Assembly (NCBI GenBank): GCA_030535455.1 | Contig: JAUNJY010000047.1 | Location: 1-32,072 of the forward strand | DNA: 32,072 bases | DNA from: a bacterium | GTDB lineage: Bacteria > Bacillota > Clostridia > Lachnospirales > Lachnospiraceae | Reading direction: 5' to 3' | Part shown: piece after piece, positions 4,531 to 27,296 of the stretch | Numbering within the stretch: the first letter of the stretch is position 1 | How the letters are laid out: each line of letters starts with the position of its first letter | Position numbers and translations under genes: made by a program | The notes under the pieces: model-generated | The model's input: the letters and a program-made list of their open reading frames with translations, nothing else | Databases searched by the model: none | Told to the model about the DNA's origin: nothing

Positions 4531-5547
4531 ATGAAAATCTCTTTTTTTCTCTTTCTTGTCATAACCGCATTCTTACTGACCTCATGTAACAAAAGTTCCA
4601 AGACTACTGATACTTCCATCCAAAACTATGCACCCGTTTTAGACACTTCTCTTGATGCCCTAGATTATGTACAGCTCTTTAAAGATGCAGGTCTGCCAAT
4701 TGACAATCTGATTATAGTTACTTCAAAGGATAAAAATAAAAGCATCTCTTCAAAAGAGTCCTCTTTTCAAAGTAAAGTCACCTTTGTAGATTCAAGGTCT
4801 CAAAGTTTCAAAGAAAATAGGTATAACGACTGTTTTCTAGAAGTTTATAGTGAAGAAGAGTCTGCCATCCTGCGAAAAAAGCTATTAGAAACACTATCTG
4901 AGTTCTCCATGGGACAAGTCTTACAAGTAGGTTCCCTTATTCTATATTTGCCAAGCGAGCTTACAGACAACCAAGTACAGCAATATAAAAAGATCTTTTA
5001 TAGCTTTCCCTATGTTTTGAAAAATGTAACGGATGCCCCTCCAAAGGAAACTGCCATTTTGCCTTCCAAAAAAAGTACAACGGCTAGCACGGAAAGTAAG
5101 ACCTACGTAGTTGGAACGGACCTTGCACCGGGAGAATATGTCTTGTTAAAGGAACTGGATAATAGCTATTTTATTCTAAAAAGTGCTGCAGACAATGCTG
5201 GCACCGATACTAAGCAGCATATTTCCACAAATCGAATTGTAAGCGTAAAAAAAGGAGATTATCTAACTGTAAAGGGAGTCTATATGAAATCCATAGCAGA
5301 CTCGCCTATACTAGATATCTCCAAACAAGGAATGTTTAAAATCGGTCTCCATCTAAATGAAGGTAATTATAAGATTGTTGTAAATTCAGATTCTATCGTT
5401 GACTTTGGAATAATTGAGCTTACAAAGGATGCCTCTTATCAATCCTCTTCCATCATAAGCACCCATGTTTTCTCCGGAACGACTACCATTCATGTGGCCA
5501 ATGGTGAATACCTATATGTACAAGGGGCACATATTGAAACAGAATGA
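4531..5547 (+). CDS. Lipoprotein of unknown function with duplicated beta-rich module
   Basis: The 338-residue protein begins with a lipoprotein signal peptide ending in LTSC, so Cys19 should be lipid-anchored on the outer face of the membrane. Residues about 40-165 form an alpha/beta region, with a Ser/Thr/Lys-rich linker at about 172-190. Two similar modules follow (about 192-252 and 268-334). Each opens with a G-x-x-L-x-x-G-x-Y pattern (VGTDLAPGEYVL; IGLHLNEGNYKI), has I-S-T in the middle, and ends with G-x-YL-x-V-x-G (GDYLTVKG; GEYLYVQG). I do not recognise a named family. It has its own promoter and start site (GGGAGG) and converges on the MntR-type gene with a 12-bp gap and no obvious terminator. 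Confidence 0.75.
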   Translation: MKISFFLFLVITAFLLTSCNKSSKTTDTSIQNYAPVLDTSLDALDYVQLFKDAGLPIDNLIIVTSKDKNKSISSKESSFQSKVTFVDSRSQSFKENRYNDCFLEVYSEEESAILRKKLLETLSEFSMGQVLQVGSLILYLPSELTDNQVQQYKKIFYSFPYVLKNVTDAPPKETAILPSKKSTTASTESKTYVVGTDLAPGEYVLLKELDNSYFILKSAADNAGTDTKQHISTNRIVSVKKGDYLTVKGVYMKSIADSPILDISKQGMFKIGLHLNEGNYKIVVNSDSIVDFGIIELTKDASYQSSSIISTHVFSGTTTIHVANGEYLYVQGAHIETE

Positions 5548-9776: not shown

Positions 9777-11903
9777 TTAAGATTTCTTTTTAATTAAGAC
9801 ATGTTCTAAAGAGAGCGTTTCTGCTAGTTCGATCGGCTGTAACTCAAAATGTAGCTCTACATTGTGCAGCTTATTGAAGTCGTAAAAATCATTTATAATG
9901 CTCTCCATCATCATGACGGCCTGATCATATGCGGTGCAAGGCAACAAGACTGCATACTGCGTTTCACTCAGCTTACAAAAGACATCCTCAATACATAAAT
10001 TACTCATAATCATTTCCTGGAGCTGCTGCATCAGCCTTATCTTTTGTGGTTCGATCAAATAACTTTTATTCTCCATATTGATAATACAAAGATAAGCCGT
10101 CTCCCCATTTTGTATCATTCTCCTAGAGCATAGCTGATACACATTTTTGAATACATGTAAATCACAGTAGTAGGCGCCTGCTGCCAGATCTGTTTCTTTC
10201 AGCAACGATTCAACCTGTCCAATTCCATATCTTTGCTCATCACTGCTCTCCAAAATCTCCAGATAAAGATTTAAGATGCTCTCTGGAGGCGTAATTCCCA
10301 AAACGGTATAATACTCCTGCTCTATATATTCAAAATGTTCTAATGCTTCTTTATTGCGTTTCAATTGGATAAGCGCCCGTAGATAATAATAATGGATGCG
10401 GCTGTCAAAGGCTTCTAGGAAGATTACTTTTCTGCTCAGCTCGATAATCTTAATATATTCCTCACGAGCATAGCAAATGGACAGCAAGGTCGATAAAATC
10501 TCATAATACATACTGCGATAGCGCTCCCTAAGGTCATTTACCCATTTGATATTCAGGACTTTAGAAAGGTAATCACCTTGATATAACTCCACTGCCCTCT
10601 CGCATAGACGGTATACGTTGTCTCCCTCTTGCTCATTTTGTATCTGTGTATACAGGTTTTCAAACAGCTCAGTATCTACAATGCACATGTAACTGGTGTT
10701 CCAATGATACGTGCCATTTCTCATTACGATCAAATCATGTAGAAATGAGAGCTTCAAAACGCCAAGTTCTTCCTTCGCATCCTCTAATAGTTTCTTTAGC
10801 TGATAATTCTCATCCTGAATTTTATCATATGGCCAGATTGCCTGAACTAATTCCTGTTTCGTATATTCCTTTTGGCGGTTGGTAATTAGAAATACAAGCA
10901 TCAAAAGTACATGGCTCATTTTTTCATTTTTAGGAGTCATAGTGCCCTGTCTGGATAACAAGCGCAAGCGCCCAAATAAAAATACCTCGATCTGCCCCTT
11001 ATTCTGCTCCTGGTCATCCCAGACAATCTGGTTTCTACCAAGGCTCTTTGCACGATACAGACGTTTATCTACGCTGTCTACATTTTTCTCAATTTCATGA
11101 GTATTCGGGATAAGCGTATTGCCTCCAATGCTGACGGTAACCACTTTGTCAGCCCTGCTATGGAGATGCTCAATCTGAAGTGCCTTCACATTCTTACGCA
11201 TTCCATCCATAATCTGATACGCTTCTTTTTCATCATAGCCCCATAGCACAACGACAAACTCCTCTCCTCCGTATCGAGCAACAAAGTCTCTCTTGTTTGG
11301 CAGGCTCTGCTTCAAAACTTGGGCTACTCTTTTTAGTACCACATCCCCTTGTAAATGCCCATAATTATCGTTATATTCTTTAAAACAGTCAATATCCACA
11401 ATGGATATGCTAATCTTTGTCCCTGTTGAAAGTGCCTTGCACCAGTATTCTTTAATTTTCTCATTATAGCTTCTCCGATTGGGCACTGCCGTAAGTCCAT
11501 CTAACATGGCAATATTCTCAATCGTCTTACGATATTCAAATAACTCAATATGATTTTTTACCTTCGCCTTGATCACACTTGGATTAAATGGCTTTGTTAT
11601 GTAGTCTACGGCTCCTAAGCGTAATCCTTTTTCTTCGTATTTATCCTCTTTTAAACTAGTGATAAACATTACTGGTACAGATTTTGTCGTAGGATTTTCC
11701 ATCAGCACATTAAGTACCTCAAATCCATTCATTTCCGGCATAAGAATATCTAAGAAAATCAGGCTGCATGGAATATTAGATGCCAGCTTGATCCCTTCTT
11801 TTCCGTTTTTTGCTACAACTACATGGTACTGTTCTTTTAACATGACATATAACGCATTAATATTTACTGCGCTGTCATCTATAATCAATATCGTATGTTT
11901 CAT
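9777..11903 (-). CDS. REC-GGDEF-SARP/BTAD fusion response regulator
   Basis: The 708-residue protein joins four parts. Residues 1-120 are a receiver domain with Asp9/Asp10, phospho-acceptor Asp52, Thr82 and Lys104. Residues about 130-295 are a diguanylate cyclase domain with an intact GGEEF (212-216) and the typical LDGLTAVPNRRSY entry; the allosteric I-site RxxD is not present (NKRD at 203-206). Residues about 305-410 form a winged helix of the SARP/OmpR type, followed by a BTAD/TPR-like region (about 412-560). The last about 140 residues resemble a degenerate GGDEF-like domain seen at the end of clostridial SARP proteins. It overlaps the kinase gene by 4 bp (ATGA) and is the likely phosphorelay output. 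It would make c-di-GMP and bind DNA. Confidence 0.88.
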   Translation of the reverse strand: MKHTILIIDDSAVNINALYVMLKEQYHVVVAKNGKEGIKLASNIPCSLIFLDILMPEMNGFEVLNVLMENPTTKSVPVMFITSLKEDKYEEKGLRLGAVDYITKPFNPSVIKAKVKNHIELFEYRKTIENIAMLDGLTAVPNRRSYNEKIKEYWCKALSTGTKISISIVDIDCFKEYNDNYGHLQGDVVLKRVAQVLKQSLPNKRDFVARYGGEEFVVVLWGYDEKEAYQIMDGMRKNVKALQIEHLHSRADKVVTVSIGGNTLIPNTHEIEKNVDSVDKRLYRAKSLGRNQIVWDDQEQNKGQIEVFLFGRLRLLSRQGTMTPKNEKMSHVLLMLVFLITNRQKEYTKQELVQAIWPYDKIQDENYQLKKLLEDAKEELGVLKLSFLHDLIVMRNGTYHWNTSYMCIVDTELFENLYTQIQNEQEGDNVYRLCERAVELYQGDYLSKVLNIKWVNDLRERYRSMYYEILSTLLSICYAREEYIKIIELSRKVIFLEAFDSRIHYYYLRALIQLKRNKEALEHFEYIEQEYYTVLGITPPESILNLYLEILESSDEQRYGIGQVESLLKETDLAAGAYYCDLHVFKNVYQLCSRRMIQNGETAYLCIINMENKSYLIEPQKIRLMQQLQEMIMSNLCIEDVFCKLSETQYAVLLPCTAYDQAVMMMESIINDFYDFNKLHNVELHFELQPIELAETLSLEHVLIKKKS

Positions 11904-14512
11904 TCTTCCACCCCTAATAACTGTCTGGTTTTCTCCAGCGTTTGTTTTGCTATTTCAAAATCGTAATGTTCAATCTGAGTAATCAAGAGATTTACTTGCC
12001 CAATCAGGTCTTCCCTATATAGATACCGATATAAGTTTTCGGTCTCATCTACCGCATTGGCACTATGGGATAAGATCAGTTTCTCCAACCTGTCTAGCAG
12101 CTGCTCTGCCTTGTCCCTTTGAAATCCCTTTTTGTACGTTGTCATCCTTATGGACTGTGCATATGGAATCAGCTCCTCATTTACAAGCTTAAGTTCTGTC
12201 GTAAAAAGCAGGCAGACATTCTTGTCCACATTATCCTTTATTATCATTCCTTCCAGACGTTGCGCCAGCTTTGCAAGCTCAAAAGCTCCAATTGTATTAG
12301 CTAGCCCCTTGATGGTATGGACATACAGCCTTGCTTCTTTTTGTTCTTTACGAATCAGCTGGTTAATCTTAGTCAAATCCTTCTGATATTCTTTAATAAA
12401 ATTAAATACAATCTTGTTATAAAGATAATAATCATTATCCAGCTGCTTTAGAGCCGTTACATAGTCAATATGTTTGAACGGGTAACTCTTTCTTTCCTTC
12501 TTTGCCTCACCAAGCTCCACTGTACTTGCAATCTCTTCTTGATAGGGTCCTTCAAACTGCAGATATTTTTGCAGTATATATTCTATGCTCTTCTGATTTA
12601 CCGGTTTGGTCAGGCAGCCGCTCATCTGTCCTTCATTTACCTGCTCTTTTACCTCTTCAAAGGTATTGGCTGTCATTGCAATAATCGGAATATCCTTTTT
12701 TAAGTTCCTAATTCGCCTGCTCGTTTCCCAGCCAGAAAGCTTAGGCAGGTATAAGTCCATGATAATCAGGTCAAACGGTCTGTTTTTTACAAGCGACAAT
12801 GCCTTATATCCATCTTTTACAACCGTTGTATTCACGCCAAAACGTTCTAGCAGTTCACACAGTACCATCTGGCTTGTACTGTTCTCCTCTACTACAAGTA
12901 TGTCACCTTTGTATTGGCAAGGCGGTTTACTAATACTTGTGTCCACTTCCGTATTCCTAACAAGATCCTGCTTGCATTGTTTTAATGGCAACGCAAAATA
13001 AACCTTGGTGCCTTCATTCTCTTTGCTAAAAACTTTGATACGGCCTCCCATTGCTTCAATTAATTCCTTAGAAATCAGCATGCCGAGCCCCGTTCCATTC
13101 TGTCCTTTCTTCCTAGCCTGTCCCTGACTGCTAAATGGATCAAATATATGGGATACAAAGTCTTCTGACATTCCTGTTCCTGAGTCCTTTACTATAAACA
13201 ACAGGCCCTTGTCACGTTTTCTTACGATTAGCTTTACGTACCCCATCATCGTATATTTCACAGCATTTCCAAGTAAGTTCATAAGAACCTGCTGCAGACG
13301 CAGGCTGTCCCCGCTATAGGTGTCCGGCACATGCTCTTCGATTTCCACAATCAGACGCAGGTCCTTCTCAACCGCCTTGTTATTTAACAAGGTGATTACT
13401 TTCTGGATTACCAGCTTCAAGGAAAATGCCTCCTCATAAACCTTAATCTCTTCCTCTGCAATCTTTGAATACTCTAAAATATTATTGATCACTTCTAATA
13501 GGTCAACAGCGCTTTCTTCAATCTTCTCAAGATAGTTGTAGACCTTATAGGTGCGTGGTTCTTCAAGCGCAAGGCTGGCAAGTCCGATCATTCCTGACAA
13601 AGGCGTCCGAATCTCATGGCTCATCTTGGCTAAAATATTAGCACTATTTGCAAGTGCTGCCTCAGCATCAAGCTTCTGCTGTTCCATATGGGTAACCTCC
13701 AGATATGCTCCCCGATAACCAATGCATTCTCCATTCTCCTCATATAGGAAGACTCCAGTAAGAAGCATCCAATGGGGAATTCCCTGCTTATCATTCACTT
13801 GCATAAGGCTGCCATTTGCCTGTTCCTCCGGTTTCTCATACATTTGATTAATTTTTTCTATTGCCTTTTCCCTTGCCTCTACCGGAAACAGCTCATAGTA
13901 GTATTTCCCCAGAAATTCTTCCGCTTCATAGCCAAGAACCTTTAAAATTCCCTCACTAATATAAATAAACTGTCCGTTCACATCTAATTCAAAAACAATT
14001 TCATTCCTTGCCATTGATAAGGTGTGATAGCGTTCTTCACTGTCCTGTATCATCTTTTCTGCAAGAAAGCTGTCTGTAACATCCACAAAGATACAGGCGC
14101 ATCGGTCTTCACCTACTGCATAACAAGTAATCTTGATATACGTCTCCTCGGCTTCGTCAAATTCAATAAATGCCATCCGATTTCCTTCTGAAACGACTTC
14201 TCCGCAGACCTTTAGCAGTCGTTGGCTAAACCTTGGAATAACCTCTTTGACTGACTGCTCTAAAATCTCTTGGTCTTTATTGTAATAACATTCTAAAAAT
14301 TCGTTATTTGCATATTCAAAAATTAAATCTGCTGGCTTCTTTGATTCTTCCATGACTACACGAAACAATACAACTCCCATGCTCATCTCACAAAATACAT
14401 GAGTAAGCTGCTTTTGTTCTTTCTCGCATTTTTCATATTGGCTTTTCAAATTTTCATACTCTTCTTTTAGTAAGGTGTTTTCATTCATCAACTTTTTCAT
14501 TTTTTTGAACAT
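11900..14512 (-). CDS. Soluble PAS hybrid histidine kinase with REC and HPT domains
   Basis: The 870-residue protein has no membrane helix. It starts with a coiled coil (about 1-40), then two PAS-like regions (about 40-150 and 160-285), HisKA with His299 in SHEIRTP, an HATPase domain (Asn412/Asn416, DSGTGM, GTGLGM), a receiver with Asp586 and Lys636, and an HPT domain with His732 in HTIKG. A complete internal phosphorelay therefore ends at HPT, which should phosphorylate the receiver of the next gene. The ATG at 14512 is preferred because AAGGGG lies about 8 nt upstream; an in-frame ATG at 14539 falls at the expected transcription start. The signal sensed is cytoplasmic and unknown. Confidence 0.93.
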   Translation of the reverse strand: MFKKMKKLMNENTLLKEEYENLKSQYEKCEKEQKQLTHVFCEMSMGVVLFRVVMEESKKPADLIFEYANNEFLECYYNKDQEILEQSVKEVIPRFSQRLLKVCGEVVSEGNRMAFIEFDEAEETYIKITCYAVGEDRCACIFVDVTDSFLAEKMIQDSEERYHTLSMARNEIVFELDVNGQFIYISEGILKVLGYEAEEFLGKYYYELFPVEAREKAIEKINQMYEKPEEQANGSLMQVNDKQGIPHWMLLTGVFLYEENGECIGYRGAYLEVTHMEQQKLDAEAALANSANILAKMSHEIRTPLSGMIGLASLALEEPRTYKVYNYLEKIEESAVDLLEVINNILEYSKIAEEEIKVYEEAFSLKLVIQKVITLLNNKAVEKDLRLIVEIEEHVPDTYSGDSLRLQQVLMNLLGNAVKYTMMGYVKLIVRKRDKGLLFIVKDSGTGMSEDFVSHIFDPFSSQGQARKKGQNGTGLGMLISKELIEAMGGRIKVFSKENEGTKVYFALPLKQCKQDLVRNTEVDTSISKPPCQYKGDILVVEENSTSQMVLCELLERFGVNTTVVKDGYKALSLVKNRPFDLIIMDLYLPKLSGWETSRRIRNLKKDIPIIAMTANTFEEVKEQVNEGQMSGCLTKPVNQKSIEYILQKYLQFEGPYQEEIASTVELGEAKKERKSYPFKHIDYVTALKQLDNDYYLYNKIVFNFIKEYQKDLTKINQLIRKEQKEARLYVHTIKGLANTIGAFELAKLAQRLEGMIIKDNVDKNVCLLFTTELKLVNEELIPYAQSIRMTTYKKGFQRDKAEQLLDRLEKLILSHSANAVDETENLYRYLYREDLIGQVNLLITQIEHYDFEIAKQTLEKTRQLLGVEE

Positions 14513-14545
14513 AGTTTTTCCCCTTACAATTTTTTCCATATTTTT

Positions 14546-14563: not shown

Positions 14564-14617
14564 AAAAAAAGCTTTGTAGAAATAGTAGATATTTCGTCTC
14601 CCATTTCTACAAAGCTT
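14564..14617 (-). terminator. Terminator of the SGNH gene
   Basis: A perfect 15-bp stem, AAGCTTTGTAGAAAT (14569-14583) with ATTTCTACAAAGCTT (14603-14617), is followed on the minus strand by seven T (14564-14570). It isolates the SGNH gene from the kinase operon. Confidence 0.85.
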
Positions 14618-17069: not shown

Positions 17070-17741
17070 ATGTTTATGGATCTAACGGAAATGAAAGTTA
17101 GCTGTTCCTATAATTCTGCATTGCAGATAAAGGTCGTTGCAGGACACTTCGCTACAAATCATTCCCACATCAATTACTATCTCGATCTTAACACAACCAA
17201 AGTACGTCAGAAAGAAGCATTTGCCGTTGCAAGAACTATGGCAAATGAGTATGTAGCCAATACGGTAATCGACACCATTGTCTGTATGGATGGCATGGAG
17301 ATTATCGGAGCCTATCTCGCAGAAGAATTGACTGCTGCTGGTATTATGTCGATGAACGCCCATCAGTCGATTTATATCATCACGCCAGAAGTCAATCGAA
17401 ATGGCCAGCTGATCTTTCGTGACAACATTAAGCCAATGGTCAAAAACAAGCACATCTTATTGTTACTTGCCAGTGCAACAACAGGCATTACCATTGCCAA
17501 GAGTCTAGAGTGTATTGAATACTATGGTGGCGAAATTCAGGGAATTAGTGCAATCTTTAGTGCCGTTTCCGAGATTCGTGACCATACCATCAACTCCATC
17601 TTTCGTGCCAAAGACTTGTATGACTACGAAACCTACCCTCAGAACGATTGTCCTCTATGCAAACGTGGCATAAAGCTTGATGCAATGATTAATAGTTATG
17701 GTTATTCTGAATTGACAAACACAAAGCCATCAGACCATTAA
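17070..17741 (+). CDS. Phosphoribosyltransferase-like protein with degenerate PRPP loop
   Basis: The 223-residue cytoplasmic protein resembles the orotate phosphoribosyltransferase fold: a strand-rich N-terminal part, VIDTIVCMDGMEIIGAYLA, and the segment ILLLLASATTGITIAKSLE, which aligns with the PRPP loop. In catalytic members that loop has an acidic pair before the small residues (as in EDxxxTG); here the positions are Ala134 and Ser135. A C-P-L-C pair (Cys194, Cys197) near the C terminus could bind metal. The start has GGAGGGGGT directly upstream; a second ATG at 17076 is possible. It may be a regulator or a divergent enzyme. The strong operator at its promoter suggests tight control. Confidence 0.7.
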   Translation: MFMDLTEMKVSCSYNSALQIKVVAGHFATNHSHINYYLDLNTTKVRQKEAFAVARTMANEYVANTVIDTIVCMDGMEIIGAYLAEELTAAGIMSMNAHQSIYIITPEVNRNGQLIFRDNIKPMVKNKHILLLLASATTGITIAKSLECIEYYGGEIQGISAIFSAVSEIRDHTINSIFRAKDLYDYETYPQNDCPLCKRGIKLDAMINSYGYSELTNTKPSDH

Positions 17742-25823: not shown

Positions 25824-27296
25824 CTATTTAGCAGCAGTCTCTTCAAATACTTCTGTAGGTACAAAACGTAAGCGAACATCTGGAAGCTTCTTGATTACAG
25901 TATAGCTGTTTTCCATCCAGTCCTCTCCTGCTTCTTCACTATTTTCACCGGTTGCAGGTGGTGCAAATACATTTAGACTCAAGTCACAAGCGCCATCCAA
26001 AGGTCTTTCAAAGAAAGCACTCATCATATCGATTGTCTTTACTCCAGGTGCCTTATAGAACCATCTGCCGTTTAGTTCCATCATTAAATTAAGATCCACT
26101 AATTCCTCGTCAAAATTAACTTCTGCAAATACAGGATTGCTGTCAAAATGTAATGGAATAGAAAGTCCTGTGGAGTCTTCCGCACTGCCCCATCTTAATG
26201 TAACTGGGAATGTTACTTCTTCCTTTGTTTCCATTTCTGGTTTAAAGTAGTCATCATGTAAGATTTCTTTATATACTGCTAATTCTGGCTGCTCAATACC
26301 AACCTGGCTGTTATTAGGATCAGTAATCTCAAGACCAAGTCTTCCGTCATCACGGAATTGGTAGAACGTAAATCCGCTAAACCAGTCTTCCTCATCTGCT
26401 TTTAACATCTCACAGAAATCTTTTACCATTTTTGCTTGATTATATGGGCCTGTTACATCGCCGTCTGCATTAAACTCACTCATAACCATAGGTTTGGATA
26501 CGCCATTGTTTAACTCTTTAAAACGCTTATAGCTAAGCTTTGTCAGGTTATAGATTGACTCCACTGTATACAGCTTATGACTCGTTCCGCCTGGTTCTGC
26601 AACATCATAAGGCCAGCCCCAGTGAAGTGCCATATATTTATCAACAGACCAGATATCTGTTGCCTTAACTGCCTCTTTGAACTCTTCTTCTTTTTCAATC
26701 TTTGTTGCATTTTCATCTTCAATACCACCAATACAAAGAATTGTCTTTACATTTGGTGCATATTCTTTGATGATGTTATGAAATCTCACATAAAAATCTG
26801 CAATTTCTTGATAGGTTGCACGTTTGGTAAAGGAGAACCAGTCCCCGGTTGCTTCATGATTGATACGGATCTGCATTCTTCCAAAAGTTCTTAAATCTTT
26901 TGCAATTGCAATTAGATGCTCATCAGTTACAGTTGGGTCAATTGTCAATGTCAAGATAACATCTTGTCCATGTTTACGGACATCTCTCATAAATGTGAAT
27001 GGCTCGTCTTGTAAATTGCCATTTAATCCGCCTTTATATGTAAAATAATCATCATATGGATAATCCCATGCAAAGGATACTTCCTGATCTGCAAACGCCT
27101 CGCTTACACGTTGTGGCCATCCCTTGTCTAATGGATAATAGCAATACATCAAGTTGATTGCTCTATGAGGTCTTCCTAATTTATTCAATATATAATCCTG
27201 ATTTACATAAAGTCCACGCTCACTGCCATCACTTAAGTCCAGTGCGCATTTTGCTGGTCCCATATGTAATCCATATGCTTTTAAGTTCTGTTCCAT
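25824..27296 (-). CDS. Clan GH-A-like glycoside hydrolase, cytoplasmic
   Basis: The 490-residue protein has no signal peptide. Residues about 40-345 look like a TIM-barrel of clan GH-A: the acid/base motif is RINHEATGDWF with Glu148, reminiscent of the RPYHEMNGxWF pattern of GH26, and the nucleophile is Glu274 in PMVMSEFNADG near the end of the barrel. The C-terminal 130 residues form a beta-rich domain. The family could not be fixed with confidence (GH26-related is the best guess). The ATG has GAGGAGG about 10 nt upstream, and an extended -10 promoter is at 27330-27358. The gene stands alone, divergent from the purine permease. Confidence 0.7.
   Translation of the reverse strand: MEQNLKAYGLHMGPAKCALDLSDGSERGLYVNQDYILNKLGRPHRAINLMYCYYPLDKGWPQRVSEAFADQEVSFAWDYPYDDYFTYKGGLNGNLQDEPFTFMRDVRKHGQDVILTLTIDPTVTDEHLIAIAKDLRTFGRMQIRINHEATGDWFSFTKRATYQEIADFYVRFHNIIKEYAPNVKTILCIGGIEDENATKIEKEEEFKEAVKATDIWSVDKYMALHWGWPYDVAEPGGTSHKLYTVESIYNLTKLSYKRFKELNNGVSKPMVMSEFNADGDVTGPYNQAKMVKDFCEMLKADEEDWFSGFTFYQFRDDGRLGLEITDPNNSQVGIEQPELAVYKEILHDDYFKPEMETKEEVTFPVTLRWGSAEDSTGLSIPLHFDSNPVFAEVNFDEELVDLNLMMELNGRWFYKAPGVKTIDMMSAFFERPLDGACDLSLNVFAPPATGENSEEAGEDWMENSYTVIKKLPDVRLRFVPTEVFEETAAK

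What the first reader, a model, noticed from the sequence alone, without database searches (positions are those of the whole stretch)
9777..11903. Fusion of receiver, diguanylate cyclase and SARP-type DNA-binding output in one protein
The gene joins an intact REC (Asp52), an intact GGEEF cyclase without an RxxD I-site, a SARP/OmpR winged helix with a BTAD/TPR-like region, and a degenerate GGDEF-like tail. The combination would couple a phosphorelay to both c-di-GMP synthesis and transcription. REC-GGDEF and SARP are each common, but their fusion with a degenerate second GGDEF is not one I recognise. Absence of the I-site suggests no product inhibition.
Basis: partly seen in the sequence, partly recalled or inferred. 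Interest (0 to 1): 0.7.

Follow-up and report, generated by a model that had tools for sequence, protein, structure and literature searches.

The report
Signalling enzyme fused to ex-gene regulator
In one bacterial genus an enzyme that makes the messenger c-di-GMP has become fused to a gene regulator whose DNA-reading residues are changed; the regulator's tail belongs to a widespread, unnamed domain family that looks built to sense the same messenger.

Summary
The 708-residue gene (9777-11903, minus) encodes REC, an intact GGEEF cyclase without I-site, a SARP-type wHTH-BTAD unit and a degenerate GGDEF tail. It overlaps a hybrid kinase by 4 nt. The fusion is in 4 of 4 held genomes of the genus (REC cut off by a contig end in one) and forms one clade (100/99). 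No other was printed among matches in 397 family and 391 class genomes (capped lists), where the C-terminal unit is normally a separate ~400-aa protein.

Two corrections. (1) The DNA-binding output is doubtful: the equivalent of AfsR's base-reading R92 is Arg in 41 of 43 other homologues but D/E/N/E in the four fusions. (2) The tail is a mobile module without a Pfam model, also carried by cyclases. It keeps an I-site RxxD in 88 of 91 copies, against 19 of 91 catalytic GGDEFs sampled. The window's copy is an exception.

Most likely: a phosphorelay-controlled, feedback-poor cyclase with a repurposed C-terminus. Nothing was assayed. The bolder lead is the separate SARP-tail family as c-di-GMP-sensing regulators.

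The parts
9777..11903 (-). REC-GGDEF-wHTH-BTAD-GGDEF' fusion protein, 708 aa
   Evidence: ORF; Pfam; orthologues
11559..11891 (-). REC domain (residues 5-115), phospho-acceptor D52, K104
   Evidence: Pfam 1.4e-23; residues
11028..11510 (-). Catalytic GGDEF domain (132-292), GGEEF at 212-216, I-site absent (NKRD)
   Evidence: Pfam 1.3e-44; PleD alignment
10695..10997 (-). OmpR/SARP-type winged-helix region (303-403)
   Evidence: sub-threshold Trans_reg_C; alignment with 43 other homologues
10764..10814 (-). Recognition helix (364-380) with changed DNA-contact residues: E374, D375, K377, E378 in place of AfsR S91, R92, R94, K95 (own sequence mapping)
   Evidence: AfsR contacts
10251..10679 (-). 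BTAD (409-551)
   Evidence: Pfam 4.8e-12
9804..10235 (-). Degenerate GGDEF tail module (557-700), SETQY in place of GGDEF
   Evidence: hhalign with controls; PDB profile hits to GGDEF proteins, best E 0.0024; b-a-bb-a-b core in a low-confidence model
9984..9995 (-). Former I-site of the tail: C637-I-E-D640 (R lost); second Arg lost at S668
11900..14539 (-). Partner hybrid histidine kinase, 879 aa: PAS-HisKA (H308)-HATPase-REC (D595)-HPt (H741); overlaps the cyclase gene by 4 nt
   Evidence: same pair in G001
14569..14617. 21-nt inverted repeat (90% complementary) followed by a T run on the minus strand, between the GDSL gene and the kinase gene; terminator-like to the eye, with a TATAAT-like box before the kinase; not listed by the terminator scan
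   Evidence: (sequence)

Best explanation
The protein is the output of a local phosphorelay. The hybrid kinase, apparently co-transcribed, passes phosphate His-Asp-His (HPt) to D52 of the REC domain; phosphorylation pairs two subunits and switches on the GGEEF cyclase, as in PleD/WspR/DgcR (inferred from family; no assay). The catalytic domain has no I-site and the tail of this copy has lost its I-site Arg, so product feedback should be weak or absent (inferred). The C-terminal 400 residues are a SARP regulator captured once, in the ancestor of this genus, and then repurposed: selection is kept, but the residue that reads DNA bases is gone. It most likely serves as a dimerisation or partner-docking unit (perhaps still RNA polymerase or sigma, which AfsR touches) rather than as a sequence-specific DNA reader.
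For: Domains and catalytic residues. Kinase-cyclase pair overlapping 4 nt, also in G001. Fusion in 4 of 4 genus genomes, one side of a branch with support 100/99 and length 0.68 among 49 rows. Position equivalent to AfsR R92: R in 41 of 43 other homologues, E/D/N/E in the fusions; net helix charge +1 to +4 in 43 of 43 against -5, -3, -3, +2 (contacts from PMC10936776, passages). wHTH G000 against G001: pN 0.12, pS 0.86. Tail I-site Arg lost here, kept in G001-G003.
Against: The G003 helix is still net +2 and three of the four fusions keep a Lys at the R94 position, so non-specific DNA binding is possible. G003 has no kinase next to the gene but an OmpR-type regulator, and G002 is cut off there, so the kinase pairing is seen in only two of four. 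The structure model was poor (mean pLDDT 50.3), so the wHTH fold was not confirmed. Synonymous sites are near saturation, so pN/pS is a rough guide.
Confidence: 0.6

Rival explanations
1. One reading: one protein with two outputs, c-di-GMP synthesis and sequence-specific transcription control, both driven by REC phosphorylation; the changed recognition helix simply reads a different site.
For: BTAD and wHTH region retained in all four fusions and under purifying selection between G000 and G001; Lys kept at the R94 position in 3 of 4. The low Trans_reg_C score of the window protein is no argument against it, since two of four other homologues scanned score nearly as low.
Against: Base-reading Arg replaced by D/E/N/E, acidic helix in 3 of 4, against 41 of 43 with Arg elsewhere.
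Confidence: 0.2
2. The C-terminal half is a passenger in slow decay after fusion, without function.
For: The tail is the least conserved part (60% identity to G001 against 81-82% in REC and GGDEF) and lost three of four conserved Arg here.
Against: Reading frame kept in four species; between G000 and G001 pN well below pS in every domain; three of four tails keep RxxD and ERI.
Confidence: 0.12
3. Tail as a second, in-protein feedback site: in the relatives (not in this copy) the tail's I-site binds the product and cross-links the cyclase, replacing the I-site that the catalytic domain lacks.
For: G001, G002, G003: catalytic I-site absent, tail RIED/RIGD/RIGD and ERI present.
Against: Across the sample no hand-over is seen: catalytic I-site in 7 of 36 tail-bearing and 12 of 55 tail-less cyclases, Fisher p = 1.0. 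The window copy lost the site.
Confidence: 0.2

Closest known systems
REC-GGDEF cyclases PleD, WspR, DgcR
   Same: REC then GGDEF, catalytic residues; among the best PDB matches (2wb4, 1w25, 3i5a, 6zxm)
   Different: No I-site; carries a 400-residue SARP-derived C-terminus
SARP regulators (AfsR, EmbR type)
   Same: wHTH followed by BTAD; large SARPs also carry extra C-terminal domains (PMC10936776, passages)
   Different: SARP unit lies behind a cyclase, recognition-helix contacts changed, and the extra domain is a GGDEF-like module rather than NOD/TPR or FHA
c-di-GMP receptors with degenerate A-site and intact I-site (PopA, SgmT)
   Same: Tail family: GGDEF motif lost, RxxD kept, and an Arg 31 residues further on (spacing 31 in 90 of 91 copies), as SgmT R763-R794 (passages) and R359-R390 of PleD chain 2wb4
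   Different: Module at the C-terminus of SARP regulators and c-di-GMP enzymes in Clostridia; this window's copy has lost both Arg; binding untested
Separate SARP-tail proteins of the same family (~400 aa)
   Same: Direct relatives of residues 303-708, 21-29% identity
   Different: No REC or cyclase; keep the basic recognition helix and nearly all keep the I-site

Membership tests
REC-GGDEF diguanylate cyclase | REC with acidic pair, phospho-acceptor Asp, T and K | tested here: met
   D9/D10, D52, T82, K104; Pfam
REC-GGDEF diguanylate cyclase | GG(D/E)EF with metal-site Asp | tested here: met
   GGEEF 212-216, VDID 169-172, ND and GH motifs
REC-GGDEF diguanylate cyclase | Makes c-di-GMP on phosphorylation | not testable with these tools
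   needs an enzyme assay
I-site feedback in the catalytic domain (optional feature) | RxxD nine residues before GGDEF | tested here: not met
   NKRD (window), SETD, KKNA, PYGG in the fusions
SARP | BTAD behind an OmpR-type wHTH | tested here: met
   BTAD 4.8e-12; wHTH by homology only, Pfam sub-threshold, fold not confirmed
SARP | Basic recognition helix with the AfsR DNA contacts | tested here: not met
   R92-equivalent is D375; K95-equivalent is E378
SARP | Binds DNA and activates transcription | not testable with these tools
   needs EMSA/DAP-seq and a transcription assay
Degenerate-GGDEF I-site receptor (PopA/SgmT type) | GGDEF homology without the A-site | tested here: met
   hhalign 90.9%, E 1.2e-6, controls 0.2-0.3%; SETQY
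Degenerate-GGDEF I-site receptor (PopA/SgmT type) | Intact RxxD | tested here: not met
   CIED in the window copy; 88 of 91 tails sampled have RxxD
Degenerate-GGDEF I-site receptor (PopA/SgmT type) | Binds c-di-GMP | not testable with these tools
   needs ITC, DRaCALA or capture

The most novel reading that the evidence does not exclude
[quoted passage not shown] The window protein is a side branch in which a cyclase took over such a regulator and both its DNA reading and its ligand site were given up.
Probability: 0.45. Interest if true: 0.75.

Novelty: new variant of a known kind. Interest (0 to 1): 0.5.

Why it matters
The fusion shows a transcription regulator being turned into an accessory part of a signalling enzyme within one genus. 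More widely, the tail gives a concrete, testable candidate for how c-di-GMP could reach gene expression in Lachnospiraceae: a module for which no Pfam family reached its cut-off in the proteins scanned, and whose first, third and fourth most conserved columns, over 91 copies at 26% median identity, are the positions of the PleD I-site residues. If binding is shown, many BTAD-type regulators of Clostridia would gain a ligand.

Tried and rejected
I-site hand-over: I expected cyclases with a tail to lack their own I-site more often than those without. They do not (7 of 36 against 12 of 55, p = 1.0; one of the 36, L101, is a spurious GGEEF match). Rejected as a general rule.

Full-length structure prediction with three rows gave mean pLDDT 50.3. 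Only the tail stretch 601-690 (blocks of 60-81) is usable and shows the b-a-bb-a-b order of a GGDEF core. It does not confirm the winged helix.

First tail-GGDEF comparison held one catalytic fragment among 56 rows; repeated clean (probability 95.1 fell to 91.6 with that row removed, and is 90.9 with the 91-row set).

No Rfam family reached its gathering score in the window, so no known c-di-GMP riboswitch was found there.

Co-occurrence of tail and GGDEF: 122 of 123 tail genomes have a GGDEF at 1e-12 against 127 of 176 others (Fisher 6e-12). The exception, G098, has two SARP-tail genes: L219 keeps RxxD but lost the second Arg; L220 keeps both although no GGDEF passes the cut-off in that genome. 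L220 speaks against a c-di-GMP ligand, unless the assembly (97% complete) misses a cyclase.

Survey limits: at most four candidates per genome were scored and not all rows were printed. Among printed rows whose match includes the wHTH, frames over 600 aa were G000, G003, G222 (further C-terminal residues, V4R only at E 0.084) and G344 (HAD hydrolase in front). Other phyla were looked at only by the two clade-specific peptide patterns: 31 stretches, 3 relatives, of which L033 is a plain actinobacterial SARP.

Papers. GGDEF+BTAD: 5 papers. I saw passages of four: in two 'btad' is part of a DOI, in one the held text has neither word, one treats kinases; the fifth (PMC12636743) only in the listing. 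Listings, with no title or abstract start that describes the fusion: 0 papers; 7; 20 of 34 listed; 20 of 57 listed; 0; 1, a Streptomyces product; 0. From these I looked up passages of PMC11960120, PMC12564702 and PMC3509222. The library lacks most subscription journals.

Full report
WHAT IS THERE. The ORF 9777-11903 (minus) has 708 codons before the stop. Pfam finds REC (5-115), GGDEF (132-292) and BTAD (409-551) above cut-off; the winged helix is only hinted at (Trans_reg_C, 16.6 bits, cut-off 26.2), and the tail has no match. REC and cyclase residues are intact; the I-site position reads NKRD where PleD has RAID.

THE OPERON. The gene overlaps by 4 nt an 879-aa kinase with PAS, HisKA (H308), HATPase, REC (D595) and HPt (H741). 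A 21-nt inverted repeat with a T run (14569-14617) and a TATAAT-like box lie between the preceding GDSL gene and the kinase; the pattern scan did not list that repeat. So the pair is probably its own transcription unit (inference). G001 has the same overlapping pair. G003 has an OmpR-type regulator 27 nt upstream instead. In G002 the contig ends. The window has ApbE and FMN-binding genes behind the fusion; L031, L032 and L064 have genes of similar size and direction there (not scanned with Pfam).

DISTRIBUTION. All 4 held genomes of the genus carry the fusion, G002 without its REC part. In 397 family genomes 137 match the C-terminal profile at 1e-10; printed matches that include the wHTH lie in frames of about 285-490 aa, apart from G000, G003, G222 and G344, and the last two are other fusions. 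In 391 class genomes 48 match at 1e-8 and no other frame over 600 aa with the wHTH was printed. A tree of 49 C-terminal halves puts the four fusions on one side of a branch (100/99, 0.68 changes per column). One fusion event is the simplest reading.

THE DNA READER. I aligned 49 C-terminal halves; two lacked the helix and were dropped, leaving 4 fusions and 43 others, which include the G222 and G344 proteins and a few close pairs. They were picked as best matches to the fusion, not at random. AfsR inserts its recognition helix in the major groove with R87, T88, S91, R92, R94 and K95; R92 contacts a base (PMC10936776, passages). Counted from the conserved Trp (AfsR W74), these fall on helix positions 6, 7, 10, 11, 13 and 14; this mapping is mine. 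Position 11 (R92) is R in 41 of 43, K in 1, Y in 1; the fusions have D (window), E (G001), N (G002), E (G003). Position 13 is R or K in 43 of 43; fusions K, K, T, K. Net helix charge is +1 to +4 in 43 of 43; fusions -3, -5, -3, +2. Between G000 and G001 the wHTH has pN 0.12 and pS 0.86: kept, not rotting. Hence I read it as repurposed.

THE TAIL. A profile of 91 tails aligns with 10 active GGDEFs at probability 90.9, E 1.2e-6, while REC and BTAD profiles give 0.2 and 0.3; 'RYSxSQ(Y/F)' lies over 'RxGG(D/E)EF'. The module also follows REC-GGDEF in L029 and lies between REC-GGDEF and REC-HD-GYP in L021 (Pfam); by reading of translations it follows GGDEF in L017, L020 and HD-GYP-GGDEF in L016, L030; in L028 it is alone. 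It matches in 123 of 299 family and 91 of 398 phylum genomes at 1e-8; many weak phylum hits cover only the GGDEF-like core and are probably ordinary GGDEFs. Over 91 unique tails (E at most 1e-10 and at least 95 profile positions; 52 SARP type including the 4 fusions, 32 cyclase type, 7 other) RxxD at the I-site register is present in 88, with both x variable. The Arg of 'ERI' is present in 87, and the spacing is 31 in 90 of 91. The same spacing is seen in SgmT R763-R794 and DgcR R206-R237 (passages) and between R359 and R390 of PleD chain 2wb4. Among 140 columns, D85, R82 and R113 rank first, third and fourth in conservation; median pairwise identity is 26%. Catalytic GGDEFs in the fetched loci have RxxD in 19 of 91 (an uneven sample, one entry spurious). 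The three tails without RxxD also lack the second Arg, against 1 of the 88 others (Fisher 3.3e-5; relatedness not corrected). SgmT shows that a GGDEF with a dead A-site and a live I-site binds c-di-GMP and that the I-site Arg is needed (PMC3509222, passages).

THIS COPY. The window tail has Q598, C637 and S668 where the family has R41, R82 and R113; G001, G002 and G003 keep all three.

SHOWN AND INFERRED. Shown: architecture, gene overlap, restriction to the genus within capped samples, single clade, substitutions, conservation of the triad. Inferred: phosphorelay direction, cyclase activity, loss of DNA reading, ligand of the tail family. Against the ligand idea: L220, in a genome without a GGDEF over the cut-off, keeps the triad.

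VERDICT. A new variant of a known kind (REC-GGDEF cyclase) built by capture of a SARP-tail regulator. The more interesting result is the tail family and its SARP partners; it needs one binding assay.

Noticed in passing
L005-L011, L013, L014, L022, L023, L036-L063 and others: Separate ~400-aa wHTH-BTAD-GGDEF' proteins are widespread in the family; [quoted passage not shown]
   Followed up: partly
L016, L017, L020, L021, L029, L030: The same tail sits behind REC-GGDEF or HD-GYP-GGDEF parts, and in L021 between REC-GGDEF and REC-HD-GYP.
   Followed up: partly
L067:4368-6341 (G344): HAD hydrolase fused in front of a SARP-tail unit.
   Followed up: no
L066:3284-5098 (G222): SARP-tail protein with about 200 further C-terminal residues; V4R only at E 0.084.
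   Followed up: no
L064:6400-7107 (G003): OmpR-type response regulator 27 nt upstream of the fusion in place of the hybrid kinase.
   Followed up: no
L219, L220 (G098): Two SARP-tail genes in a genome with no GGDEF above cut-off; one keeps the full I-site triad.
   Followed up: partly
window 25827-27296 and 4531-5544: Proteins of 490 and 338 aa without a Pfam match at 1e-5.
   Followed up: no
window 17070-17741: 223-aa protein without a Pfam match at E 1 but a weak NCBIfam match to orotate phosphoribosyltransferase (pyrE_Therm, 31.6 bits, cut-off 150).
   Followed up: no
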